DNA of 64,000 nt from Halobaculum limi (GTDB lineage Archaea > Halobacteriota > Halobacteria > Halobacteriales > Haloferacaceae): the NCBI RefSeq assembly GCF_029490015.1, contig NZ_CP120469.1, forward strand, positions 1-64,000, written 5' to 3'. A program made the translations under genes and the position numbers. Below are positions 6,239-35,011 of the stretch, piece after piece; positions within the stretch are counted from its first letter, which is position 1; each line of letters begins with the position of its first letter. Below the pieces are notes generated by a model. That model was not told the DNA's origin. It saw only the letters and a program-made list of their open reading frames with translations, and ran no database searches.

Positions 6239-7513
6239 ATGGCGAATCAGGTCGTCACCCGCACCTACACTGCTTCCATCGGGAACCAGCAACAGGTGTC
6301 CGACGATCTTGATTCGCTCGGGTTCTCAGCCTCGAAACTCTGGAACGTCGGACGATGGGTCTGCGACCGAGTATGGTCTGAGATAGGCCACATTCCCGGT
6401 CACAACGAACTCACCGCCTACCTCAAGAGCCACGAACGCTATGATGACCTGCATTCTCAGTCAAGTCAGCGAGTTCTTGAAGAACTCGCTGAGGCGTTCA
6501 ACGGCTGGTACGGCAAACGACACAACGGGGGCACGCGAGCGAACCCGCCCGGCTACCGCAAACACGGCGACGAACACCCGCGAAGCACGGTCACGTTCAA
6601 GAACAAGGGCTTCAAACTCGACACCGAATACGAGCGAGTACGACTCTCGAAGGGGTCAAACCTCAAAGAATACTGGTCTGACTTCATCCTCTGCGAGTAC
6701 CAGACTCGACCCAACGTTGACCTCTCCACCGTGGAGAGCGTCCAACAGGTTCGGGCGGTCTGGACAGGTGATGGATGGGAACTTCACTTCGTCTGCAAAG
6801 TCGAAATCGAAGTGTCTGAGTCGCCCGGTGAGAAGACGGTGGGTGTTGACCTCGGCATCAACAACTTCGCCGCACTCGCCTACGAGGACGGCCACAGCGA
6901 ACTGTACCCGCTCAATTGCCTGAAGCAGGACGACTACTACTTCAGCAAGCGAATCGCTCGCTGTGACGACTCGAACTCCGAGCAAGCGAATCGCTTGAAC
7001 CAAAAGAAGTCGGCTCGTCGCACCCACTACTTCCATACACTCTCCAAGCACATCGTTCGGCGATGTGTTGACGAAGAAGTTGGAACGATTGTGGTGGGTG
7101 ACCTCGCCGGTATTCGCGAGGATGAGGAGAACGGTGAGTCGAAGAACTGGGGTAAGCACGGCAACCTCGACTTGCACTCGTGGGCGTTCGATCGATTCAT
7201 CTCGATGCTTGCGTATAAATCCGAGATGGAAGGCGTCACGGTTGAGCGAGTGTCTGAGCGAGATACGTCGAAGTCGTGTTCGTGCTGTGGTCGTACACGG
7301 AAAGCGAACCGTGTTGAACGTGGGTTGTACGTGTGCGACGAGTATGGTACGGTGGCGAATGCGGACGTGAACGGTGCTGAGAACATTCGGCAGAAAGTAT
7401 CTCCGAATCCTCACGGAGAGGATAGGAGTAACGGCTGGTTGGCACAGCCATCGACGTTCTTGTTTGACAAGGAAACTGGTGCGTTCGCACCTCAAGAACA
7501 GGTCACGTCGTAA
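6239..7513 (+). CDS. tnpB: TnpB-type protein (IS200/IS605 OrfB) with degenerate active site
   Basis: A 424-residue TnpB family protein, the class of RNA-guided nucleases carried by IS200/IS605 and IS1341-type elements. The RuvC-like first aspartate is present in VGVDLGIN (D204) and the last in NADVNGAENI (D376). At the position of the catalytic glutamate the protein reads TIVVGDLAGIRE: glycine 287 sits where the second copy in this window has glutamate in VIVMEDLAYIRE. The zinc ribbon keeps C347/C350, but the second pair is C366 with tyrosine at 369. It may therefore be catalytically inactive, perhaps a regulatory or decaying copy. The same substitution could also be a lineage feature. No tnpA is nearby. 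Confidence 0.9.
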   Translation: MANQVVTRTYTASIGNQQQVSDDLDSLGFSASKLWNVGRWVCDRVWSEIGHIPGHNELTAYLKSHERYDDLHSQSSQRVLEELAEAFNGWYGKRHNGGTRANPPGYRKHGDEHPRSTVTFKNKGFKLDTEYERVRLSKGSNLKEYWSDFILCEYQTRPNVDLSTVESVQQVRAVWTGDGWELHFVCKVEIEVSESPGEKTVGVDLGINNFAALAYEDGHSELYPLNCLKQDDYYFSKRIARCDDSNSEQANRLNQKKSARRTHYFHTLSKHIVRRCVDEEVGTIVVGDLAGIREDEENGESKNWGKHGNLDLHSWAFDRFISMLAYKSEMEGVTVERVSERDTSKSCSCCGRTRKANRVERGLYVCDEYGTVANADVNGAENIRQKVSPNPHGEDRSNGWLAQPSTFLFDKETGAFAPQEQVTS

Positions 7514-22474: not shown

Positions 22475-22636
22475 ATGAGAGCCGACTTCAATATGGAGCG
22501 AGGCGGGCCACTTCACGAAGCCGTGAAGGAATACGCCCGCGACCACGGGATACGCCACTCACGAGCATACCCCGAACTCCTCCGCAAAGCACTCGAATCC
22601 GAAGGCTACGATGTCAACGACCCAGACGGCGAATAA
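22475..22636 (+). CDS. 53-residue ORF overlapping the start of tnpB
   Basis: ATG 22475 opens a 53-residue reading frame whose product begins MRADFNMERGGPLHEAVKEY and ends DVNDPDGE. It is mostly charged and helical (HEAVKEYARD, PELLRKALESEG). It overlaps the tnpB start (22611) by 26 bases in another frame, so coupling is likely. Composition looks genuine. It has no transposase (TnpA, Y1) motif. It may be a small element-borne accessory or regulator; function is unknown. Confidence 0.6.
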   Translation: MRADFNMERGGPLHEAVKEYARDHGIRHSRAYPELLRKALESEGYDVNDPDGE

Positions 22637-23885
22637 GACGCTGGAAGCCACGCTCGCACCCCCAACACGGTGCAAAGAGCAACGCCTCCAGCAAACGCTG
22701 TCTGAGTACCGAGAGGCACTCCACGAGGCGTTCGAGCAAGACTGTACGACGATGAGTGCCACGAACGACGTGGTGACGCCGTACAACCTGCCGTACCAAG
22801 CGAAAGACGCCCTCAAATCCTACGTCCCCAAACTCCACAAGACGTACAACGCCAACGAGTTGGACGACGAACACCCGCTCCGATTCGTGAACCGGGCTGG
22901 GAAGTTCGACCGCGACTCTTCGCGTGAGTACGAAATCTGTTGGAACGTTCCGCAACCCGGTCGCGGAACCAACTTCTGGATACCACTCCGACTGAATCCC
23001 GAACAAGAGAGACTGTGGGACGACCTGTTCGATGACGAGTCGAGTACGAAAGTGGGCGAACTCCGCTTGCAGAAACACCGAAAAACGTGGACGCTCCACG
23101 CCACCGTTGAATACGAAATCGAGGACACCTCTGAACTCCCCGAGAACCCGACTCGGGTTGGCTTCGATATTGGTGAGTCGATGTTGGTTACGGGCTGTGC
23201 CCTCCAACACGACACGCCGACGAACCCGTTGCTCATCAACGGGAAAGAAGCCAAGCGACTCCGCAAGGAGATGTTCACGACCCTGAAACGCCTGCAGGAG
23301 CGAGACGCTTTTGAGTGGCGCGTCGAGGAACGCGTCTCGTACTACCAGAGCCGACTCACGGACATCATCGAGAAGGCATCTCGTGAGTCTGTGGAGTACG
23401 CCCGTCAGTTCGAGAAACCCGTCATCGTGATGGAAGACTTAGCGTACATCCGCGAGTCATTGGACTACGGGAAGTATATGAACCGACGCCTGCACTCGTG
23501 GGCATTCGCTCGATTGCAGGGGCGTATCGAAGACAAGGCGAAGGACGCAGGGATTCCAGTCCGGTACGTTCACCCTCAATACACGAGTCAGACGTGCCAT
23601 TCGTGCAAGCATATCGGGTATCGACCTCGGCAAGCCGAGTTCAAGTGTAAGAACCCAGAGTGTCACGTATCGACGTTTCAAGCAGATATTAACGCGAGTG
23701 CGAACATCGCACGTCGCGTCAACCCGTGGGGAGAGAGCCTACCAGTGAAACAGGTAGGCGATGACTCGCCACAGGATGGGCGCGGTTGTGACACCGCCAC
23801 GACTCAGTGTGAGCAGAGCGAGACACCCTCGCAGATGACACTCACATCGTTTCAAGAGTCGAAACCCACTGCCAGCGACGATTAA
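22611..23885 (+). CDS. tnpB: TnpB-type RNA-guided nuclease, catalytic residues intact
   Basis: A 424-residue TnpB family protein with all expected catalytic residues: D186 in VGFDIGES, E275 in VIVMEDL, and D359 in FQADINASANIA. The zinc ribbon is complete (C329/C332 and C346/C351). TnpB proteins cut DNA under the guidance of an RNA made from the right end of the element, preventing its loss. It is very diverged from the first tnpB in this window, although both encode 424 residues. The start at ATG 22611 lies inside the preceding small ORF. It is likely functional as a nuclease but not a transposase. Confidence 0.92.
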   Translation: MSTTQTANKTLEATLAPPTRCKEQRLQQTLSEYREALHEAFEQDCTTMSATNDVVTPYNLPYQAKDALKSYVPKLHKTYNANELDDEHPLRFVNRAGKFDRDSSREYEICWNVPQPGRGTNFWIPLRLNPEQERLWDDLFDDESSTKVGELRLQKHRKTWTLHATVEYEIEDTSELPENPTRVGFDIGESMLVTGCALQHDTPTNPLLINGKEAKRLRKEMFTTLKRLQERDAFEWRVEERVSYYQSRLTDIIEKASRESVEYARQFEKPVIVMEDLAYIRESLDYGKYMNRRLHSWAFARLQGRIEDKAKDAGIPVRYVHPQYTSQTCHSCKHIGYRPRQAEFKCKNPECHVSTFQADINASANIARRVNPWGESLPVKQVGDDSPQDGRGCDTATTQCEQSETPSQMTLTSFQESKPTASDD

Positions 23886-24057: not shown

Positions 24058-24989
24058 TTATGCCGGTACGTTGTCGGTCGATTCGACCTCCTCGGAGAGT
24101 GGACGTCGACGCCAGTATCTGGCGACGAGCAGCGATACAATGAGCATCACGACGGCGAGTGTGGCGATGCTCTGGGCGACGCCAGACTCCGGGAACGCTC
24201 CCGTCGCGATGAACAACGCGACGTTGATGTTGCGGCCAGCCGTTCCGAGCGCGAGGATCCGCCGATCCCGCTGAGTCGGACCGCCCACCACCCAGCCGAC
24301 GAGGACGGACGCGAGGACGAACACCGTCATCACTGCGAGCGCCCCGGTTCCGAGCATCGCGGTGAACGTACGAATCGTCGTTCTGAGGTTGAGGAGGATG
24401 ACGAGCACGAGTGCGATACCGAGCGTCGCGTTCGCCACCAAGAGGAGCCCCCGCGCGAGGGGGACCGCGAGGTCCGGTCGATAATATCGGAGGGTGCTGC
24501 CGGCGAACATTGGGACTACGAGTAGGGCCACTAACGGCCAGAGGAATCACCACGGTGAGAACCGGATGTCCACGCCGAATAGAGTCAACAGCGTGGCGAC
24601 GATCAGCGGCACAGTCACCGTCGCGACGAGCGTCAGTGCGACGGTCAAGTGAACGGCCTCTTTGGAGTCCTCGCCTGCCATCGCGACGAGTTGTGGGATG
24701 AAGGGTGCACCGGGTGCGATGGCGACGAGCAGTAGTCCGAGGACGAACGGATCGGCTAAGTCGAACACGACCCCAGAAGCAACGCGAAAAGCGGGACGGC
24801 GAGGAGGTTCGCGAGGGCCCACCGGGAGATGAGGTTGTACTGACGGATCGTGCCGACGACGTCCCCCTGTGTTAATCTGGTCCCCAGGGCGGCCATCAAC
24901 GAGACGATCGAGACCGTCACGAACAGGCCTTGGAGTCTCGAGAGGACGAAGACGAGTGCGTCGACGAAGTCGATCACGTTCGGTTGCAC
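24058..24989 (-). pseudogene. Broken BASS-family transporter gene
   Basis: Three pieces of one membrane transporter can be read on the minus strand, in the order expected from the intact paralogue at 25655-26533. The N-terminal piece (24989 down to about 24775) ends in frame-shifted sequence at a run of four G/C bases. The middle piece contains APGAPFIPQLVAMAG, matching AAGAPFLPKLVEMAK of the paralogue. A TGA at 24547-24549 then interrupts the frame, after which the C-terminal piece continues in the same frame with VGWVVGGPTQRDRR, matching VGWLVGGPTTDTR. One frameshift plus one nonsense codon indicate inactivation. The intact copy next door and the tnpB element about 120 bases away fit a region of rearrangement and decay. 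Confidence 0.85.
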
Positions 24990-25018
24990 GGTGGAGATTG
25001 CGTGTGACGGTCGCGGCG

Positions 25019-25564
25019 TCAGATCGAATCGATCGCCGCGACGACGGCGAGCACGAACGCGTGGTCCTCGCCCGGCATCACCTCAACCCCGTAGGTGTCA
25101 CGCACACGGATCCACCGCTTGGAGACCGTCGCGACCGGAGCTCCGTTTCGGGTGATCCGATACTCGTGATCGAGGATGTTCCCCTGTACGTGGAGCGGGG
25201 GGCCGCCAACCACGTCCACATCGAAGCGATCTCTGAAGGGTGTCACGAGCGCCTTTTGTACGGTAGCGACGGTCTGGCCGTCCCGGTCGATGGCCATTGT
25301 CTGTTTCAGCCTGAGGACCCTCGCTTGCACGCGATAGAGGAGGCGGCCACGCTGGTCTAAGATCCGAATGGTGTTTCGCAGCCTGAGGGCCTTCCCGTCG
25401 ACGCGATACGCTGGGACGCCCCCCGCCGTCTTGATCACGTAGTCGTTCCCGAAGGCGACGAGTCGCTCACGCATCTGGTAGCGCGTTGGCCCGGTAGGCG
25501 TCTCTATACCCTGACGGGCGTCTCGTCGCTTCTGACGCCGTTGTCTCCCGCGTCGGGCGTTCAT
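25019..25564 (-). CDS. LURP-one-related (scramblase-like fold) protein
   Basis: A 181-residue soluble protein. After a basic N-terminal tail (many Arg and Gln, residues 1-25) comes a repeated beta-strand pattern typical of LURP-one-related proteins: YVIKTAGGVPAYRVDGKAL, DQRGRLLYRVQ, DRDGQTVATVQKA, DHEYRITRNG. The family fold resembles Tubby and scramblases, but its role in archaea is not established. It lies between a broken and an intact copy of a BASS-type transporter on the same strand. Confidence 0.85.
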   Translation of the reverse strand: MNARRGRQRRQKRRDARQGIETPTGPTRYQMRERLVAFGNDYVIKTAGGVPAYRVDGKALRLRNTIRILDQRGRLLYRVQARVLRLKQTMAIDRDGQTVATVQKALVTPFRDRFDVDVVGGPPLHVQGNILDHEYRITRNGAPVATVSKRWIRVRDTYGVEVMPGEDHAFVLAVVAAIDSI

Positions 25565-25654: not shown

Positions 25655-26533
25655 TCAGTCATTATTGGTTACTCCCACGGCCTGAGCCGGTTGTGACCGC
25701 TCGGTTCGCTTGCCCAACTCGCCAGCGAGGACGATGAGCAATCCCATCAACGTCGCACCGACGACCAGCATCACGACGACGTCCGGGTCCTCGAAGTTCG
25801 CCGCACCGACGACAAGTGCGGCGGAGACGTTGCGCTGAGCCGTTCCGAGGCCGAGTACCGCTCTGGTGTCGGTGGTCGGTCCACCGACCAACCACCCGAC
25901 ACCCAGCGACCCGACGATGAGTACCGCGAATGCGATGATCACACCCGTCCCGATCACACTGATCAGCGTCTGGACGTTGAGGACGAGCATGAGCACCACG
26001 AGGAACACCAGCGCAGTCGAGGAGGTCTGATTCACGGTCGGCTGCAGGCGCGCGGCCGTGTCGGCGTAGCGGGCTCTCACGAACAGACCGAGTCCCAGCG
26101 GCACGAGCATCAACACGACCAGCGACTGCGCGATCTCGACCGGATCGACCTGCACGCCCGGCAGGAGGAACGGGAGTACGATCGGCACGTACGCGACCGT
26201 CACCACCATCAACAGCACCATCAGGCCGACACCGAAGGCGACGTCCGCCTTCGCCATCTCGACGAGTTTGGGCAGGAAGGGTGCGCCGGCAGCCGTCGCC
26301 AACAGAATCAGCCCGATGGACTGCGCCTCGGTCAGCGGGATCACGAGCAGGATCGCGTACGCGAGGAGGGGCACGAGGACGAAGTTCGCGACCAGCGCCT
26401 TCGCGACCAACGCGAGGTCCCGAAGGGGGTCGAGTATCTGTCCGACGGTGAGGTTGAGCCCCATCGCCAGCATACTGGTCACGACGAACACCAGCACAGA
26501 CAGCGTAGCGAGCGATTCGAGGATGACGACCAT
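25655..26533 (-). CDS. Bile acid:sodium symporter (BASS) family transporter
   Basis: A 292-residue membrane protein with about nine to ten segments. Family features visible are the early MLAMGLNLTVGQI, the broken-helix region LLATAAGAPFLPKLVEMAK, and the second crossover LGLGTAQRNVSAALVVGA. Members import organic anions such as bile acids or keto acids with sodium. It starts seven bases after the stop of the aspartoacylase-like gene, suggesting joint transcription, so the hydrolase and transporter may share a substrate. The substrate cannot be read from sequence. Confidence 0.9.
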   Translation of the reverse strand: MVVILESLATLSVLVFVVTSMLAMGLNLTVGQILDPLRDLALVAKALVANFVLVPLLAYAILLVIPLTEAQSIGLILLATAAGAPFLPKLVEMAKADVAFGVGLMVLLMVVTVAYVPIVLPFLLPGVQVDPVEIAQSLVVLMLVPLGLGLFVRARYADTAARLQPTVNQTSSTALVFLVVLMLVLNVQTLISVIGTGVIIAFAVLIVGSLGVGWLVGGPTTDTRAVLGLGTAQRNVSAALVVGAANFEDPDVVVMLVVGATLMGLLIVLAGELGKRTERSQPAQAVGVTNND

Positions 26534-26539
26534 CGTCGC

Positions 26540-27646
26540 TCACTCCACTCGGGAGTCGTCGAGAAGTGGTTCGGCAATCTGCTCGCCCATCTTCCCCATC
26601 CAGTGGAAGGTCCCGTGTCTGGCGAATCCGACGTCTTCGTACGCGCTACGGATGTGCTCGCGATCCTGCTCGTCTATCTCGACGAGGTGGACGAGCGGGT
26701 GGCCTGGAAGCACTCGGGGGTTCGCCAGAATCCCTGCGAGGAAGCCGTCGAACGGGGCGGTGACGACGTGTTCCTCCGTTCTGAAGTGATCCGAGATGAC
26801 GCAGATGGTCTCGCCCTCGTCGACGACGGGTAACGGTCCCCACTTCATCTCGACAAGACCGCCGTGGTCGGCGCGGATCCACTTCTTCTGGTTCTCGCTC
26901 GTGAGGACCTTCTGGAAGTCAGATCGCCGCGGCGTCGCCTCAGGGTACATCTCGTAGGCTGCCAGGACGTTCTCGACCGTCTGGAGGCCTAGGTCGATGA
27001 GCATCGGTTGGAAGCGGTTCGCCTCCCCCATCTCCACGGTGACGATGGGCGTCCCTTGCTCAGTTGCCACCCGTCGGAGCATTCCTGAACTCCCCTCCCC
27101 CGACATCACGAGTGGAATCCCTGCAGCCTCGACGAGGCGCTGGATGCCCTCGTCTTCCATATCGGCGCGGCCGTGGAAGACGGTCATCCGGTTGCGCGTC
27201 GACGTGTGGAAGTCGAGTCCGATGTCGCACTTACTGACGAAGTGATCCCAGATGCTCCGGGCCATCCGCGAGGCCGTCGATCCCGCGCTGGTCCCCGGGA
27301 ACGACCGGTTGAGGTCTTGATCGTAGATGGGGAGGTAGCGTTGCTGGGCGATGTAGCCGGGGACGTTGACGACGTGTAGGCAGACGATAGCTCCGTGGAG
27401 GTTCGCCGGATCGTAGCGGTCGGCGACCTCTTGGAGCACTTTGACGCCGTTGACCTCGTCGCCGTGGATGGCCGCGCTCAGACACAGTCGGGGGCCGGGG
27501 TGTTCGCCGTTGATGATCGTCACCGGCAGTTCGACGGGCCGCCCGAGGTACGTCTCGCCGACTTCGTACTGGATGTGTCTGATCTCGCCGGGGTCGACCT
27601 CGGCGTCGTAGCGGAACGGTCGTGGTGTGTCGTATTTGTGGTTCAT
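26540..27646 (-). CDS. Succinylglutamate desuccinylase/aspartoacylase family zinc hydrolase
   Basis: A 368-residue zinc-dependent hydrolase of the M14-like AstE/ASPA family, which cleaves amide bonds of N-acyl amino acids. Zinc ligands are expected in AAIHGDEVNG (histidine and glutamate) and in GLDFHTST (histidine). A likely catalytic glutamate lies in VTVEMGEANRF. A C-terminal beta domain (about 250-340) follows, as in this family. It sits seven bases upstream of the BASS transporter gene and may process the transported compound. The exact N-acyl substrate is unknown. Confidence 0.9.
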   Translation of the reverse strand: MNHKYDTPRPFRYDAEVDPGEIRHIQYEVGETYLGRPVELPVTIINGEHPGPRLCLSAAIHGDEVNGVKVLQEVADRYDPANLHGAIVCLHVVNVPGYIAQQRYLPIYDQDLNRSFPGTSAGSTASRMARSIWDHFVSKCDIGLDFHTSTRNRMTVFHGRADMEDEGIQRLVEAAGIPLVMSGEGSSGMLRRVATEQGTPIVTVEMGEANRFQPMLIDLGLQTVENVLAAYEMYPEATPRRSDFQKVLTSENQKKWIRADHGGLVEMKWGPLPVVDEGETICVISDHFRTEEHVVTAPFDGFLAGILANPRVLPGHPLVHLVEIDEQDREHIRSAYEDVGFARHGTFHWMGKMGEQIAEPLLDDSRVE

Positions 27647-27819
27647 AATCTTCGGCGAGTGTTGACCGACTCGTCACTGTTCTCAGGCACCGATGGCCGT
27701 CGAGCGGCTTTGTTATACCCGCTGAACTGAACGTTCGCTCTCCTTTCCACAGTGGACGGTCCGCTTACCGCACGACTGCTCTGGCCCGAGGTTGACGACG
27801 CGAAGCCTGCCCTACTGCG

Positions 27820-28956
27820 TCACTCATCGTCCGAATCGGTCACGACCGTTGGAGCCGGGACTCGTTCGATCCGCTCTGTGCGCCGATACGATCTGTACGC
27901 CAGACGGGTGACGCCGCCGAGACCGAGGAGGAGAACGATCGACTCGACTACCGGGCCCACCACTGGGAGCAACACCAGGAGGCCGACGACGGCCGTGCCA
28001 ACGAGTAGCCCGGCCCATCGATTCTCGATTGGTCGGCTGTCTGCCCCGAGGGCGGCCAGTACCCGCGGGATGGCGCTGAGCACCCACATCCCGACGGTGA
28101 ACCGACCGTAGACAGCGCCGACCCACGAAAGCACGAGGTAGACGGCGGCTCCAGCGAGCGCAAGCGGAATCCCGAACAAGCTCAACCCGAGCAGCAGTAG
28201 CACGATGGGGACGATTAGTACGACAGCAAGGCCAGTCCCAGCGGTGCGCAACGGGTCACCAGTCCCGAGGTCGGCTACCCGGCGAGAGAAGTTCGGGAGG
28301 AGGCCGATCAACACGAGACCGAGGACGAGCGTCGCGAGTTGCCAATATGCGTCGAACAGCGAGATGCCGAGTCGCCGGAACGGATTGAGTTGAACCGGCG
28401 CGACCGAGGGCGTGGCTACCGAGTGCTGTTGGGCCACTTGATCGTCCGCGCTACTGATGTCCAGCGACTCGAGTTGAGTAGATCCAAAGCGCGAGTCGCC
28501 TGGAACGCCTGTCAGGGCACTGTGCCAACTCGGTCCAGCAGCACCAGCGGTCGGTGACAACGTGGTTGGTGGGGCTAGTGCCGCTGCTCCACCAAAGTCG
28601 CTAGCATCCCCTTCGAACGTGAGGAGTACGCGGCTCGCGTTGACGATGCCGACAACTTCGCCGCGGAACGCGAACTCACCGAACGGCTCGGCCAGGGCCA
28701 CGTCGTAGGTCCCTCCGAGGTCTGTCTCCTGGGTGCCCGTGTCCAACCGCCCCTCTGCCATCGCTGTAAGCTCGAACCATCCTGCGGTCACGACGAGTTC
28801 GCCAGTGAGGGACGCTTGGAGGTCTAGTTCCGTGACCTGTGGCTGCTGTTGTACTGGTGCAGTCGTCGCTGCTCCGCTGACTGGAACCGCGTTGCCCGCG
28901 AGTACGAGCACCACGAGGACTAGCGCGAAGACGGTTCGGGCGGGTGCTACAGTCAT
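27820..28956 (-). CDS. Exported-domain membrane protein, unknown function
   Basis: A 378-residue protein with a Sec-type signal (residues 5-30, FALVLVVLVLAGNAVPVSGA), an outer beta-rich N-terminal domain (about 35-190), and a C-terminal membrane region of four to five helices (about 205-355) with LLLGLSLFGIPLALAGAAVYLV. The layout resembles haloarchaeal proteins with a polymer-forming or adhesive outer part anchored by a C-terminal membrane block. No catalytic motif is visible. It lies between the sulfatases and the hydrolase/transporter pair on the same strand. Confidence 0.78.
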   Translation of the reverse strand: MTVAPARTVFALVLVVLVLAGNAVPVSGAATTAPVQQQPQVTELDLQASLTGELVVTAGWFELTAMAEGRLDTGTQETDLGGTYDVALAEPFGEFAFRGEVVGIVNASRVLLTFEGDASDFGGAAALAPPTTLSPTAGAAGPSWHSALTGVPGDSRFGSTQLESLDISSADDQVAQQHSVATPSVAPVQLNPFRRLGISLFDAYWQLATLVLGLVLIGLLPNFSRRVADLGTGDPLRTAGTGLAVVLIVPIVLLLLGLSLFGIPLALAGAAVYLVLSWVGAVYGRFTVGMWVLSAIPRVLAALGADSRPIENRWAGLLVGTAVVGLLVLLPVVGPVVESIVLLLGLGGVTRLAYRSYRRTERIERVPAPTVVTDSDDE

Positions 28957-28966
28957 CTTGTATCGG

Positions 28967-28993
28967 TCACCCCCGGCGTGGTCGCCGGGGTGA
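28967..28993 (-). terminator. Strong GC stem-loop between two minus-strand genes
   Basis: Arms TCACCCCCGGCG (28967-28978) and CGCCGGGGTGA (28983-28993) pair around a TGGT loop, with one bulged C. It lies 10 bases ahead of the membrane-protein start and about 130 bases after the sulfatase stop. It may act as a processing or termination structure. It also resembles the CCCCGGCG stem of the tnpB right end at 23910, but without the TTCA loop or GATGTCA ending. Confidence 0.4.
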
Positions 28994-29121
28994 CGTGGAC
29001 CGAGGAATCGGTCGGTCGGCCGATGTTCGTGCCGTTCGTCTCTGCGGCCGTGGTCGGCCGCTCACCGGTTCGGATCCAGCGGCGGACCGAACCGGATGCA
29101 CGCTCACGGTCCGTTCTGTCT

Positions 29122-31440
29122 CTATTCTCTGGCCATGATGCGGTCCATCTCCTTTTCGTCGTGGACGAATGGTTCGCCGCTCACGTCGACGGTCACTCGG
29201 GCGATATCGCCGGTGAACGCGAACGGCGCCCGGTCGCGGTACGCATCACTGATGGCGCTGACGGCGTCGCGTCCGCAACTTAGACCGCTGACAATTCCGA
29301 TGATGATCGGCACCGTCTTCGGGAGGTCGGCCTTGCCCACCTCTTGGTCGCCGTAGAAGAGGCGAACGGTCGCAGGGACGCCCTCGCCGTTGGCGATGTC
29401 TGGCTCGCCGGTCGCCTCGAACTCCATCCGGACCGATGTCTCACCTTCGGGCAGTGGCTCGTCCGCGGACACCCGGTACTCCTCGACGCCGACGTAGTTG
29501 TGGACGTAGTGCAGTCGGTTGTCCTTGACGAAGAGGCTGTAGCCTCCCGACCTACTCCCGTGGGCGAGCAAGACGCCCTCGGCACCACCCATCGGAACCG
29601 TCAGGTCGGCGGTGATGCTGTGATCGCGGTTCAAGACTTTCACGGCGGCGTTCTCGGGGATGTGCTGGCCCCCGGGGTAGTACACATACTGGTCGCGCAC
29701 TTTCCCGGGCTGTGGCCGCGGCTCTCCGAGTCGTTCGACGCCACGGCCGTCGAGCGGAAGCACGTCGTGTTTGCCGGCTTCCGACCACCACAACTGGGCA
29801 AGTTCGAGCACCTTCTCCGGGTGTTCGCTAGCGACGTCGTTCGCCTCGGCGAAGTCCTCCTCCAGGTTGTACAGTTCCCATCCCGCGTCTTCGAGGCTCG
29901 TCGCCGAGAGGTCTGCCGCCGTGATCCGTTTGCCGAATGGCCACGGGCGGACGGCACGCCAGCCGTCGTGGTAGATGGCGCGCGTGCCGATCATCTCGAA
30001 GTACTGGGTCGTGTGCTGTTCTGGGGCGTCCGATTCGTCGAAACTGTACGCGAAACTCGTCCCCTCGATGGGCGACTGCGAGTAGCCTTTCACCTCCTCG
30101 GGCGGGTCGATACCCACTGCCTCGTAGATGGTCGGGGCGACGTCGATGGCGTGGACGAACTGATCGCGGACCTCGCCTGCGGCCTCGATGCCGTTCGGCC
30201 ACGACACGATCAGCGGGTCGCTGGCGCCGCCGCGGTATGTCTCTCGCTTCCAGCGACGGAACGGCGTGTTCCCCGCCCAGGTCCACCCCCACGGGTAATG
30301 GTTGAAATACTCTGGCCCGCCGAGGTCGTCCATCGCCTCGAGGTTCTCCTCGAGGCTCTCGGGGACATTGTTGAAGAACCGATTCTCGTCGACCGAGCCG
30401 TTCGGCCCGCCCTCGGCGCTGGCGCCGTTGTCGGAGACGAGCATCACGAGCGTGTTCTCCAGTTCGCCGAGTTCTTCGAGGTAATCGAGAACCTTGCCGA
30501 TCTGGGCGTCGGTGTGTTCGAGGAAGCCAGCGTACACCTCCATCATCCGACTGTAGAGGCGCTGTTCGTCCTCCGAGAGCGAGTCCCAGCGGGCGACATC
30601 CTCGTTCTGCGGGGAGAGTTCGGTCCCCTCAGGGACGACGCCCATCTCGATTTGTCGTTCGAGGATGCGTTCGCGGGCCTCATCCCAGCCCATATCGAAC
30701 TCTCCCTCATACTTATCGGCCCATTCCTTCGGCACCTGGTGGGGCGCGTGGGCCGCGCCGGGACAGAAGTACGTGAAGAACGGTTTGTCGGGGTCGACCT
30801 GTTTGGCGTCGCCGATGAAATCGATGGCACGCTGAGCTAAGTCTTCAGTGAGGTGGTAGCCCTCCTCAGGCGTCGACGGGGGGTCGACCTGATGATTGTC
30901 GTGGATGAGTGTGGGCGTGTACTGGTCGGTGTCGCCGCCGAGGAACCCATAGTACCGCTCGAAGCCACGCTGTAACGGCCACTGGTCGTACGGGCCGGCA
31001 GCGCTGGTCGACTCGGCGGGTGTGAGGTGCCACTTGCCGAGGTGGTAGGTGCTGTAGCCCTCTTCGACGAGCGCCTCCGAGACCATCCCGTTCTCGTGGG
31101 GGATGTGGCCGTTGTATCCCGGGAAGCCAGTCGACGCTTCGGCGATGGCGGCCATCCCGTTCGAGTGGTGGTTCCGCCCGGTCATTAGACAGCTCCGCGT
31201 CGGCGAGCACAGCGCGGTCGTGTGGAAGTTGTTGTACCGGAGGCCGTTCTCTGCGAGGCGGTCGATGTTCGGGGTGTCGATGAGGCCGCCGTAGCAGCCG
31301 AGCTGTCCGAAGCCGACGTCGTCGAGCGTGATGAGGAGGACGTTTGGAGCGTCCTCGGGTGCTCGCGTCTGTTCTGGCCACCAGGGTTCTGATTCGTCGT
31401 ACGTACGGCCGATGTGGCCGTGGAATTCTTGATTTGACAT
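29122..31440 (-). CDS. Arylsulfatase (formylglycine type), copy 1
   Basis: A 772-residue alkaline-phosphatase-superfamily sulfatase that hydrolyses sulfate esters. The cysteine to be converted to formylglycine is C78 in CSPTRS. Metal ligands are expected in ITLDDVGFG and in the histidines of MTGRNHHSNG; the conserved lysine/histidine stretch GKWHLTP follows. Another active-site aspartate lies in LVSDNGASAEGG. The C-terminal part (about 600-772) is beta-rich. There is no Sec or Tat signal, so it should act in the cytoplasm. It lies 12 bases after a close paralogue of the same length. The FGE gene three genes upstream can mature both. Confidence 0.94.
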   Translation of the reverse strand: MSNQEFHGHIGRTYDESEPWWPEQTRAPEDAPNVLLITLDDVGFGQLGCYGGLIDTPNIDRLAENGLRYNNFHTTALCSPTRSCLMTGRNHHSNGMAAIAEASTGFPGYNGHIPHENGMVSEALVEEGYSTYHLGKWHLTPAESTSAAGPYDQWPLQRGFERYYGFLGGDTDQYTPTLIHDNHQVDPPSTPEEGYHLTEDLAQRAIDFIGDAKQVDPDKPFFTYFCPGAAHAPHQVPKEWADKYEGEFDMGWDEARERILERQIEMGVVPEGTELSPQNEDVARWDSLSEDEQRLYSRMMEVYAGFLEHTDAQIGKVLDYLEELGELENTLVMLVSDNGASAEGGPNGSVDENRFFNNVPESLEENLEAMDDLGGPEYFNHYPWGWTWAGNTPFRRWKRETYRGGASDPLIVSWPNGIEAAGEVRDQFVHAIDVAPTIYEAVGIDPPEEVKGYSQSPIEGTSFAYSFDESDAPEQHTTQYFEMIGTRAIYHDGWRAVRPWPFGKRITAADLSATSLEDAGWELYNLEEDFAEANDVASEHPEKVLELAQLWWSEAGKHDVLPLDGRGVERLGEPRPQPGKVRDQYVYYPGGQHIPENAAVKVLNRDHSITADLTVPMGGAEGVLLAHGSRSGGYSLFVKDNRLHYVHNYVGVEEYRVSADEPLPEGETSVRMEFEATGEPDIANGEGVPATVRLFYGDQEVGKADLPKTVPIIIGIVSGLSCGRDAVSAISDAYRDRAPFAFTGDIARVTVDVSGEPFVHDEKEMDRIMARE

Positions 31441-31452
31441 TGGGTTCTCCAG

Positions 31453-33771
31453 TTATTCTCTCGCCATAATGCGGTCCAGTTCGGCCTCCTCGTGAACGAC
31501 TGCCTCGCCGCTGACGTCGACGGTGACGCGGGCGATGTCGCCCGTGAATTCGAAGGGCGTCTGCTCGCGGTAGGCGTCGGTGACGGCGTTCACGCTGTCC
31601 TTGCCACAGCTCAAACCGGCGGTAAGTCCGGTGGTGATGGGGGTCGTGACGGGAATCTCGCCTTCTCCGACCTGCGTGTCGTCGTAGTACAGGCGGACGG
31701 TTCCGGGTGTGCCCTTTCCGTTTTCGAACTCGGGTTCGCCGGTCACTTCGAACTCCATACTGACGGTGACGTCGCCCTCGGGGAGCATCTCGTCAGCGAC
31801 AACCTCGTACTGGTCGACGCCGACGTAGTTGTGGACGAACTTGAGGCGGTTGTCCATCACGTACAACGAGTAGCCACCGGAGCGGGAGCCGTGAGCGAGC
31901 AAGACGCCCTCGGCGCCGCCTATCGGTACCGTCAGGTCGGCGGTGATGCTGTGGTCGCGGTTGAATACCTTCACAGCGGCGTTCTCGGGGACGTACTGGC
32001 CGCCCGGATGGTAGACGTACTTCTCGCGGGGTTTTCCGGGCTCTGGGCGCGCTTCGGCGAACCGCTGGACGCTGCGACCGTCCAGCGGAAGGACGTTGTG
32101 CTTGCCGGCTTCGGTCCACCAGAGCTGGGCGAGTTCGAGCACCTTCTCAGGATGCTCGCTCGCGACGTCGTGTGCTTCAGCGAAGTCCTCCTCGACGTGG
32201 TAGAGTTCCCACCCGGAGTCCTCCAGGGTGGTTGCTGAGAGATCCTCCGCAGTCATCGGCTTGCCGAACGGCCACGGGTGGACGGCGCGCCAGCCGTTGT
32301 GGTAGATTGCCCGGGTCCCGAGCATCTCGAAGTACTGGGTGGTGTGCTGTTCGGGCGCGTCCGCATTCTCGAACGTGTACGCGAAGCTCTGGCCTTCGAT
32401 TGGCGACTGCGAGTAGCCTTTCACCTCCTCGGGCGAGTCGATACCGACCGCCTCGTAGATAGTCGGCGCGACGTCGATGGCGTGGACGAACTGATCGCGC
32501 ACCTCGCCTTCCGCGTCGATACCGTTCGGCCACGACACGATCAGCGGGTCGCTGGCGCCGCCGCGGTATGTCTCTCGCTTCCAGCGACGGAACGGCGTGT
32601 TCCCCGCCCACGTCCAGCCCCACGGGTAATGGTTGAAGTGCTCGGGGCCGCCGAGGGTGTCCATCGCCTCGAGGTTCTCTTCGAGGTCCTCAGGAACGTT
32701 GTTGAAGAAGCGGTTCTCGTTCACGGATCCCGTCGGGCCGCCTTCGGCGCTGGCGCCGTTGTCAGAGACGAGCATCACGAGGGTGTCGTCGAGTTCGCCG
32801 ATCTCTTCCAGGTAATCGAGCACTTTGCCGATTTGGGCGTCGGTGTGCTCGAGGAAGCCCGCGAACACTTCCATCATTCGCGCGTACAGTTTCTGTTCAT
32901 CCTCGGAGAGCGAGTCCCAGCGACGGACGTCCTCGTTTTGCGGGGAGAGTTCGGTATCCTCGGGAACCACGCCTTCTGCCTTCTGTTGTTCGAGGATTCG
33001 TTCGCGGGCTTGGTCCCAGCCCATATCGAACTCCCCTTCGTACTTATCGGCCCACTCCTGGGGAACCTGGTGCGGTGCGTGGCACGCACCGGGCGCAAAG
33101 TACGAGAAGAACGGCTTGTCGGGGTCGACCTGTTTCGCGTCCCCGATGAACTCGATGGCGCGCTGTGCGAGGTCCTCCGTAAGGTGGTAGCCCTCTTCGG
33201 GCGTCGCCGGGGGGTCGACCTGATGATTGTCGTGGATGAGTGCGGGCGTGTACTGGTCGGTGTCACCGCCGAGGAACCCGTAGAAGCGCTCGAAGCCACG
33301 GTTGAGCGGCCACTGGTCGTATGGGCCGGCAGCACTCGTGGATTCGGCGGGTGTGAGATGCCACTTTCCGAGGTGGTACGTGCTGTACCCCTCCTCGACG
33401 AGTGCTTCGGGTATCATCCCGTTCTCGTGGGGGATGTGCCCGTTGTAGCCCGGGAAGCCGGTCGAGATCTCGGCTATGCCGGCCATACTGTTCGAGTGGT
33501 GGTTTCGCCCGGTCATCAGACACGAGCGGGTCGGCGAGCACAGCGCGGTCGTGTGGAAGTTGTTGTAGCGCAACCCGTCGTCGGCGAGGCGGTCGATATT
33601 CGGGGTGTCGACGAGGCCACCATAGCAGCCGAGCTGACCGAAGCCGACGTCGTCGAGCGTGATGAGGAGGACGTTCGGAGCGTTTTCAGGTGCTCGTGTC
33701 TGCTCGGGCCACCACGGCTCCGATTCATCGTACGTACGGCCGATGTGGCCGTGAAATTCTTGATCTGGCAT
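31453..33771 (-). CDS. Arylsulfatase (formylglycine type), copy 2
   Basis: A 772-residue sulfatase, a clear tandem duplicate of the next gene: the two agree over long stretches from EFHGHIGRTYDESEPWW to the final IMARE. The formylglycine motif CSPTRS, the LDD metal motif, GKWHLTP and SDNGASAEGG are all present. Differences are concentrated in the C-terminal third and in surface positions, which suggests a shift in substrate preference rather than decay. No export signal is visible. ATG 33771 aligns exactly with the start of the paralogue; the longer frame upstream is not coding-like. Confidence 0.94.
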   Translation of the reverse strand: MPDQEFHGHIGRTYDESEPWWPEQTRAPENAPNVLLITLDDVGFGQLGCYGGLVDTPNIDRLADDGLRYNNFHTTALCSPTRSCLMTGRNHHSNSMAGIAEISTGFPGYNGHIPHENGMIPEALVEEGYSTYHLGKWHLTPAESTSAAGPYDQWPLNRGFERFYGFLGGDTDQYTPALIHDNHQVDPPATPEEGYHLTEDLAQRAIEFIGDAKQVDPDKPFFSYFAPGACHAPHQVPQEWADKYEGEFDMGWDQARERILEQQKAEGVVPEDTELSPQNEDVRRWDSLSEDEQKLYARMMEVFAGFLEHTDAQIGKVLDYLEEIGELDDTLVMLVSDNGASAEGGPTGSVNENRFFNNVPEDLEENLEAMDTLGGPEHFNHYPWGWTWAGNTPFRRWKRETYRGGASDPLIVSWPNGIDAEGEVRDQFVHAIDVAPTIYEAVGIDSPEEVKGYSQSPIEGQSFAYTFENADAPEQHTTQYFEMLGTRAIYHNGWRAVHPWPFGKPMTAEDLSATTLEDSGWELYHVEEDFAEAHDVASEHPEKVLELAQLWWTEAGKHNVLPLDGRSVQRFAEARPEPGKPREKYVYHPGGQYVPENAAVKVFNRDHSITADLTVPIGGAEGVLLAHGSRSGGYSLYVMDNRLKFVHNYVGVDQYEVVADEMLPEGDVTVSMEFEVTGEPEFENGKGTPGTVRLYYDDTQVGEGEIPVTTPITTGLTAGLSCGKDSVNAVTDAYREQTPFEFTGDIARVTVDVSGEAVVHEEAELDRIMARE

Positions 33772-34042
33772 GTGTCTCAGTGGGTTCATCGGGCCGCGGT
33801 CAAGAGTGACAGAACACAGACACGAGGTCGGCGGGTTTCGTTCTGACTTCGAGACAATCGGCCGTCGCACCCGATGTGAACTGTCCCTCCTCCTGCGTTC
33901 TTTGTTATGTATTGACAGTTTGTTGATAAGCCGACCTTTGGGGCTGGTAACGAGTGATTTCGAGCAGGAGACGGACCGACTCCAAAATCAGCGGGGCCGT
34001 TCTTTCGGCACTTCCTACCGTCTCTCGTTCCCCGAGAGTCAG

Positions 34043-35011
34043 CTACTCCGCTTCCGGCACGATACAGCGGAATCCGACGTGACTCGTCGAGGTGTCGATC
34101 GGTTGTGGGTATCGGGCCGCTGGGCGGTAGCGGAAGCAGTAGTTCGGCGCACACAGGTGTGACCCACCTTTCAACACCCGTCTCGGGATCGCGGAGGGGT
34201 CACGCGGGTCGATACTCTGTTTCTCGTCGGCACTGTGCGGATTCGTCGGTGTGCAACACGCCGGGGAATCACCAGCCGTCGGGTCCGCGCTGAACCAGTC
34301 GCGGGTCCACTCCCAGACGTTCCCGGCCACGTCGTAGAGGCCGAACTCGTTGGACGGAAACGCCCCGACCGGGGAGGTGCGCTCGTATCCGTCGTGGACC
34401 GTGTTCTCCTGTGGGAACTGTCCCTGCCACGTGTTGGCCATCGGTGTTCCGTCCGGCGTGTGCTCGTTGCCCCAGACGAACCGCTTGTGTTCGAGTCCGC
34501 CGCGTGCGGCGCGTTCCCACTGCGCCTCGGTCGGCAGTCGCTTCCCGGTCCACTCGGCGTACGCTTGGGCGTCCTCGTAGGTGACGTGGACGACGGGGTG
34601 GTCGAGCAGGCCGTCGAGGGTACTGTCGGGTCCGAGAGGTTGGTGCCAGCACGCGTCCTCGACGTACTCCCACCACTGGTTCGGGTTTCTGGTGTCGACG
34701 GGGCCGTCTGGCGACATGAAGACGGCAGACCCCGGGACGAGGTCATCCGGGGCTGCACCCGGGTAGTCGTCGGGATCTGGGTCACGCTCGGCGACCGTCG
34801 TGTAGCCCGTCTCGTCGACGAACGTGGCGAACTCGGCGTTCGTCACCGGCGACTCGTCCATCCAGAACCCATCGACGGTCACTTCCCGGACGGGCGCTTC
34901 TTCGGGGTAGAACTCCTCAGACCCCATCGTGAACTGTCCACCGGGCACCCAGACCATCTCGTCGCTCGGCGATTCGTGCGGCGGTTCGACGTCGGTTGGT
35001 GCGTGTGTCAT
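34043..35011 (-). CDS. Formylglycine-generating enzyme (sulfatase-modifying factor)
   Basis: A 322-residue FGE-sulfatase domain protein that oxidises the sulfatase active-site cysteine to formylglycine. Family hallmarks are MVWVPGGQFTMGS at the start, PVTNAEFATFVDETGY, RLPTEAQWERAARGG, and NVWEWTRDWF. The two catalytic, copper-binding cysteines are present as C287 and C292 in LCAPNYCFRYRPAAR, followed by the typical HVGFRC ending. It lies upstream of two sulfatases with a CSPTR site on the same strand, a direct enzyme-substrate pairing. ATG 35011 is preferred over a start twelve codons upstream. It has no signal peptide, matching the cytoplasmic sulfatases. Confidence 0.94.
   Translation of the reverse strand: MTHAPTDVEPPHESPSDEMVWVPGGQFTMGSEEFYPEEAPVREVTVDGFWMDESPVTNAEFATFVDETGYTTVAERDPDPDDYPGAAPDDLVPGSAVFMSPDGPVDTRNPNQWWEYVEDACWHQPLGPDSTLDGLLDHPVVHVTYEDAQAYAEWTGKRLPTEAQWERAARGGLEHKRFVWGNEHTPDGTPMANTWQGQFPQENTVHDGYERTSPVGAFPSNEFGLYDVAGNVWEWTRDWFSADPTAGDSPACCTPTNPHSADEKQSIDPRDPSAIPRRVLKGGSHLCAPNYCFRYRPAARYPQPIDTSTSHVGFRCIVPEAE

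What the first reader, a model, noticed from the sequence alone, without database searches (positions are those of the whole stretch)
25655..35011. Self-contained cytoplasmic sulfatase system
Two near-identical sulfatases (each 772 residues, CSPTRS at residue 78), an FGE with both catalytic cysteines, an aspartoacylase-like hydrolase and a BASS organic-anion importer are on one strand. None of the enzymes has an export signal. A plausible route is import of a sulfated or N-acylated organic anion, then desulfation and deacylation inside the cell.
Basis: partly seen in the sequence, partly recalled or inferred. Interest (0 to 1): 0.7.

Follow-up and report, generated by a model that had tools for sequence, protein, structure and literature searches.

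The report
Sulfatase, activator and carrier gene module
A salt-loving archaeon carries a compact gene set, borrowed from bacteria long ago, that looks built to bring small sulfate-bearing organic molecules into the cell and cut off the sulfate there; the enzymes are of known kinds, but their constant partnership with this unusual membrane carrier appears not to have been described.

Summary
The genes are really there. Sulfatases A and B (84% identical, both 772 aa) keep every catalytic residue of Pseudomonas arylsulfatase PAS, have C78 for formylglycine and no export signal. The FGE is the genome's only one, and A and B are the only PF00884 proteins found with the CxPxR motif. Of 391 haloarchaeal genomes, 17 carry this sulfatase. 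The set recurs in cyanobacteria. Haloarchaeal sulfatases form one clade inside bacteria, so the module was acquired horizontally.

Corrections: the aspartoacylase-like gene is in all 80 haloarchaea tested, so the deacylation step is unsupported. The BASS protein has the ASBT fold but neither sodium-site motif, so sodium coupling and import are inferred. Many cyanobacterial relatives have exported sulfatases, so "cytoplasmic" is not module-wide. Most likely: organosulfate uptake with intracellular desulfation; substrate unknown.

The parts
34043..35011 (-). Formylglycine-generating enzyme (FGE), the only one in the genome
   Evidence: PF03781 283 bits; aligns over full length with solved FGE 6s07, both active-site Cys present; single copy
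31453..33771 (-). Type I sulfatase B, 772 aa from the ATG, C78, no export signal
   Evidence: PF00884 225 bits; PAS catalytic residues conserved; stop 12 nt before the start of sulfatase A
29122..31440 (-). Type I sulfatase A, 772 aa, C78, no export signal; C-terminal jelly-roll domain (about residues 560-772)
   Evidence: PF00884 226 bits; nearest solved PAS 1hdh/4cxk; C-terminal model pLDDT 84, resembles laminin-G/CBM40 domains, TM about 0.5
25655..26533 (-). BASS1: ASBT-fold membrane carrier, sodium-site motifs replaced
   Evidence: PF01758 52 bits; model pLDDT 83, TM 0.80 to ASBT_Yf; motifs AGAPFLP and GTAQRN; present in 13 of 17 sulfatase-positive and 0 of 374 negative haloarchaea
25019..25564 (-). 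LURP-one-related protein (PF04525), recurring module member of unknown role
   Evidence: PF04525 55.5 bits; 12 of 17 sulfatase-positive vs 0 of 63 negative haloarchaea; beside BASS/FGE in cyanobacteria too
24088..25001 (-). Decayed second carrier gene (BASS2 pseudogene)
   Evidence: 57.6% identical to the BASS2 next to a sulfatase in L106; reading-frame shift near 24770 and an in-frame TGA
27820..28956 (-). Membrane protein with signal-peptide-like N terminus, several hydrophobic helices; no Pfam family; accessory, role unknown
   Evidence: related genes next to FGE or sulfatase in L009, L088, L090, L093, L099
26540..27646 (-). AstE/AspA-type hydrolase, 6 nt upstream of BASS; probably not specific to the module
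   Evidence: PF24827 150 bits; homologs in 80 of 80 haloarchaea; linked only in the window, L009 and L107

Best explanation
A horizontally acquired organosulfate-utilisation module. Step 1 (inferred): the BASS1 carrier moves a small sulfated organic anion into the cytoplasm. Step 2 (strongly predicted): the dedicated FGE oxidises C78 of sulfatases A and B to formylglycine. Step 3 (predicted from conserved active-site residues): A and B hydrolyse the sulfate ester in the cytoplasm, giving sulfate and an alcohol or phenol for catabolism. The LURP-one protein is a regular accessory of unknown role; the aspartoacylase-like hydrolase is probably a neighbour, not a pathway step. A and B arose by a duplication shared with related loci and may differ in substrate.
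For: Complete PAS-type active site in A and B: D40, D41, C78, R82, K136, H138, H231, D337, N338, K398. FGE with both cysteines, single copy; the other six PF00884 hits of the genome lack CxPxR. No convincing export signal in A, B or the other haloarchaeal copies. FGE ortholog 16/17 sulfatase-positive vs 0/63 negative haloarchaea, p 6e-16; BASS1 13/17 vs 0/374, p 4e-21; LURP-one 12/17 vs 0/63, p 1e-10. A BASS gene lies within 6 kb of the sulfatase in 13 of 17 genomes, often 22-110 nt away on the same strand. Cyanobacteria: 12 of 14 genomes with this BASS also have the sulfatase, p 4e-9, at least nine pairs within 2.5 kb. Vertebrate precedent for the logic: SLC10A6/SOAT imports steroid sulfates for intracellular sulfatase STS (PMC10298714).
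Against: Four of 17 haloarchaea have the sulfatase without this BASS (G003, G025, G116, G310); two of these have a SulP permease nearby instead. Most BASS-linked cyanobacterial sulfatases have Sec-type signal peptides, so there the carrier cannot be feeding a cytoplasmic sulfatase. Both ASBT sodium-site motifs are lost, so transport direction and coupling are unknown. No substrate evidence. Brines are usually rich in sulfate, so sulfur scavenging is a weak motive; carbon use is assumed. Genomes are not independent (five of 17 belong to one genus), so the p-values overstate.
Confidence: 0.55

Rival explanations
1. The sulfatase-FGE pair is real, but the BASS carrier handles the desulfated organic anion, or moves a product out, rather than importing the sulfate ester; another transporter brings in the substrate.
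For: BASS stays linked to sulfatases that carry signal peptides in cyanobacteria (L052, L060, L073, L109-L116), where desulfation precedes import; sodium-site motifs lost; some haloarchaea lack BASS.
Against: In haloarchaea and in the cyanobacterium with the closest full set (L108) the sulfatase has no export signal, so the ester itself must cross the membrane.
Confidence: 0.25
2. One reading: import of a sulfated and N-acylated anion, then desulfation and deacylation by the aspartoacylase-like enzyme.
For: The hydrolase is 6 nt upstream of BASS in the window and within a few kb in L009 and L107.
Against: The family is in 80 of 80 haloarchaea, usually several copies, and is not near the sulfatase in most module loci; only weak scores to DoeB, aspartoacylase and AstE equivalogs, all far below their cut-offs.
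Confidence: 0.07
3. The module remodels or recycles sulfated lipids or glycans of the cell itself; LURP-one, related by family to membrane lipid scramblases (established knowledge), would act at the membrane.
For: LURP-one co-occurs tightly; haloarchaea make sulfated glycolipids and glycans (established knowledge; sulfated N-glycans in PMC11980604, listed).
Against: The module is in only 17 of 391 haloarchaea and is shared with cyanobacteria that lack archaeal lipids; a cytoplasmic enzyme would not reach outer-leaflet lipids.
Confidence: 0.08

Closest known systems
Pseudomonas aeruginosa arylsulfatase PAS (AtsA, SulfAtlas S1_4)
   Same: Closest solved structures (1hdh, 4cxk; E 1e-77); all catalytic residues kept; PAS too is a cytoplasmic sulfatase (established knowledge)
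   Different: PAS is 536 aa; A and B have an extra C-terminal jelly-roll domain of about 210 residues; PAS is not known to pair with a BASS carrier
Aerobic formylglycine-generating enzyme (SUMF1/FGE)
   Same: Full-length match to bacterial FGE 6s07 and human SUMF1 with both active-site cysteines
   Different: Acidic haloarchaeal protein with an insertion near residues 265-280 relative to 6s07
SLC10/BASS carriers (ASBT, NTCP, SOAT)
   Same: Predicted fold, TM 0.80 to ASBT_Yf; SOAT carries sulfated organics in vertebrates (PMC10298714)
   Different: SGTASN becomes AGAPFLP and ExxxQN becomes GxxxRN, so both sodium-site motifs are missing; TIGR00841 score 37 against a cut-off of 326
SOAT plus steroid sulfatase 'sulfatase pathway' of vertebrates
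   Same: A carrier of the SLC10 family imports a sulfate ester that an intracellular FGly sulfatase hydrolyses (PMC10298714)
   Different: Different branches of both families, no operon, STS sits in the ER membrane; an analogy of logic, not homology of the pathway

Membership tests
Type I (formylglycine) sulfatase, S1 | CxPxR signature | tested here: met
   CSPTR at residue 78 in A and B
Type I (formylglycine) sulfatase, S1 | Metal and catalytic residues of PAS | tested here: met
   D40, D41, R82, K136, H138, H231, D337, N338, K398 present in both
Type I (formylglycine) sulfatase, S1 | C78 converted to formylglycine | not testable with these tools
   needs mass spectrometry
SulfAtlas subfamily S1_4 | Groups with PAS by SulfAtlas's own models | not tested
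   PAS is S1_4 (PMC5066984) and is the best PDB match, but SulfAtlas models were not available
Aerobic FGE | FGE-sulfatase domain and CxxxxC active-site pair | tested here: met
   PF03781 283 bits; C299/C304
BASS/SLC10 | SBF domain and ASBT fold | tested here: met
   PF01758 52 bits over cut-off 24.3; TM 0.80 to ASBT_Yf
BASS/SLC10 (sodium-coupled) | Conserved sodium-site motifs | tested here: not met
   motifs replaced in every module member aligned; R-N invariant
TIGR00841 bile acid:sodium symporter subfamily | Score over curated cut-off | tested here: not met
   37 bits vs 326.3
Aspartoacylase / succinylglutamate desuccinylase / DoeB equivalogs | Score over curated cut-off | tested here: not met
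   best DoeB 89.6 vs 402.7; only the broad catalytic domain PF24827 is met

The most novel reading that the evidence does not exclude
A previously undescribed, cross-domain organosulfate uptake and desulfation module whose carrier is a non-sodium branch of the BASS fold, with an arginine in place of a sodium ligand, tuned to sulfate esters, and with a LURP-one protein as a dedicated accessory.
Probability: 0.35. Interest if true: 0.68.

Novelty: new variant of a known kind. Interest (0 to 1): 0.5.

Why it matters
How prokaryotes take up organic sulfate esters for intracellular sulfatases is poorly known. A carrier family that follows one sulfatase and its FGE across archaea and cyanobacteria gives a specific, testable candidate. 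It would also be a microbial counterpart of the vertebrate SOAT and steroid sulfatase pairing, and gives LURP-one proteins, whose role in microbes is unknown, a functional context.

Tried and rejected
Aspartoacylase as a pathway enzyme: rejected as specific because it is ubiquitous. Pairing of sulfatase A with BASS2 and B with BASS1: suggested by L106 and L107, but the sulfatase tree does not carry it outside the window/L009/G321 group, so dropped. Promoter and terminator scans gave nothing above shuffles. Literature searches found no paper on a sulfatase-BASS partnership in prokaryotes; the library holds open-licence papers only, so absence is weak evidence. The C-terminal domain's fold match is weak (TM about 0.5) and gives no ligand.

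Full report
What is there. The interval holds, all on the minus strand, an FGE (34043-35011), two sulfatases (B 31453-33771; A 29122-31440), a signal-peptide membrane protein without a Pfam family (27820-28956), an AstE/AspA-type hydrolase (26540-27646) and a BASS carrier (25655-26533). Just outside lie a LURP-one-related protein (25019-25564) and the remains of a second BASS gene (24088-25001) with a frame shift and an in-frame TGA, next to a TnpB gene. The window is the first 64 kb of contig 2 of a two-contig, 3.48 Mb haloarchaeal genome.

The enzymes. A and B are both 772 aa and 84.2% identical, less so at the C terminus. Their best solved relatives are the Pseudomonas arylsulfatase PAS structures, and every PAS catalytic and metal residue is kept. 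Neither has a Sec- or Tat-like N terminus; the start of A lies 12 nt after the stop of B. The C-terminal 210 residues have no counterpart in PAS; a model (pLDDT 84) is a jelly roll loosely like laminin-G or CBM40 domains. The FGE matches solved FGEs over its whole length with both cysteines. It is the only FGE in the genome, and the other six PF00884 proteins of the genome lack the CxPxR motif by pattern scan, so A and B are its only evident clients. 'Self-contained' is therefore a fair description of FGE plus sulfatases.

The carrier. BASS1 has the ASBT fold (AlphaFold model pLDDT 83; TM 0.80 to the Yersinia ASBT structure). But where ASBT has SGTASN in the crossover helix it has AGAPFLP, and where ASBT has ExxxQN it has GxxxRN. 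These are the motifs that hold the sodium ligands in ASBT (residue roles from established structural work on ASBT, not tested here). The R-N pair is invariant in all module carriers aligned, archaeal and cyanobacterial, and also in the close unlinked haloarchaeal relatives. [quoted passage not shown] Sodium coupling and direction should not be assumed.

Co-occurrence. They do. Of 391 haloarchaeal genomes, 17 have this sulfatase at 71% identity or more, scattered over five families. The FGE ortholog (62% or more) is in 16 of these 17 and in none of 63 sulfatase-negative genomes; the seventeenth (G110) has a more distant FGE, as do two of the negatives. A BASS1 ortholog (66% or more) is in 13 of the 17 and in none of the other 374. 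LURP-one is in 12 of 17 and 0 of 63. Fisher p-values are 6e-16, 4e-21 and 1e-10, overstated because genomes are related (five of the 17 are one genus). Linkage is tight: some BASS gene lies within 6 kb of the sulfatase in 13 of 17 genomes, at 22, 34, 70, 71 and 107 nt in five. FGE lies within 6 kb in 12 of 17.

Beyond archaea. In 194 genomes of the cyanobacterial class, 12 of the 14 with this BASS also have the sulfatase (p 4e-9), most within 2.5 kb. One (L108, G428) has FGE, LURP-one, BASS, SulP sulfate permease and sulfatase in a row. SulP is also near the sulfatase in two haloarchaea that lack BASS (L089, L105).

Origin. The haloarchaeal sulfatases form one clade (SH-aLRT 100) inside bacterial diversity, and the haloarchaeal BASS1 clade is sister to a cyanobacterial clade (trees rooted at the midpoint). 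This fits one bacterial acquisition and spread among haloarchaea. Bacterial origin of archaeal FGly sulfatases was already proposed in PMC5066984. The A/B duplication is shared with Halorarius halobius (L009) and G321.

What does not hold. The aspartoacylase-like family is in 80 of 80 haloarchaea tested and near the sulfatase only in the window, L009 and L107 (a 79% ortholog in G003 is about 18 kb away), so there is no support for a deacylation step. Cytoplasmic location is right for haloarchaea and most of the closest bacterial relatives, but the BASS-linked sulfatases of most cyanobacteria have Sec-type signal peptides. There BASS more likely carries a desulfated product, or something else.

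Conclusion. The best-supported account is an acquired organosulfate module: carrier-mediated entry (inferred), FGE activation (strongly predicted), intracellular hydrolysis (predicted). The closest functional analogy is vertebrate SOAT plus steroid sulfatase (PMC10298714). The parts are known kinds; the conserved partnership, the non-sodium carrier branch and the LURP-one accessory appear undescribed in the literature I could search. Substrate and transport direction remain open.

Noticed in passing
window 24088-25001 (-): Decayed second BASS gene with a frame shift and a TGA, beside a TnpB gene; relatives L009 and L107 have an intact tandem BASS2. An intact BASS2-type gene remains on contig 1 (C1:2305533-2306390).
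   Followed up: yes
window 25019-25564 (-): LURP-one-related protein (PF04525), found in haloarchaea only together with this sulfatase in the sample tested.
   Followed up: yes
window 27820-28956 (-): Signal-peptide membrane protein with no Pfam family, recurring next to FGE in several Haloferax loci.
   Followed up: partly
L108:8220-9893, L089:5463-7184, L105:14151-16055: SulP sulfate permeases beside the sulfatase cluster, in two haloarchaea that lack the BASS gene and in one cyanobacterium that has both.
   Followed up: partly
L098:15687-16639 and G338:C70:36936-37913: FGE reading frame interrupted in G285 (two overlapping frames) and G338 (in-frame TGA): decay or sequencing error.
   Followed up: no
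L107:6172-7581: DUF1254/DUF1214 protein between the aspartoacylase-like gene and BASS; also near the sulfatase in L105 and L099.
   Followed up: partly
window 22611-23885 (+) and 6239-7513 (+): Two TnpB-family genes in the window, one directly beside the decayed BASS2.
   Followed up: no
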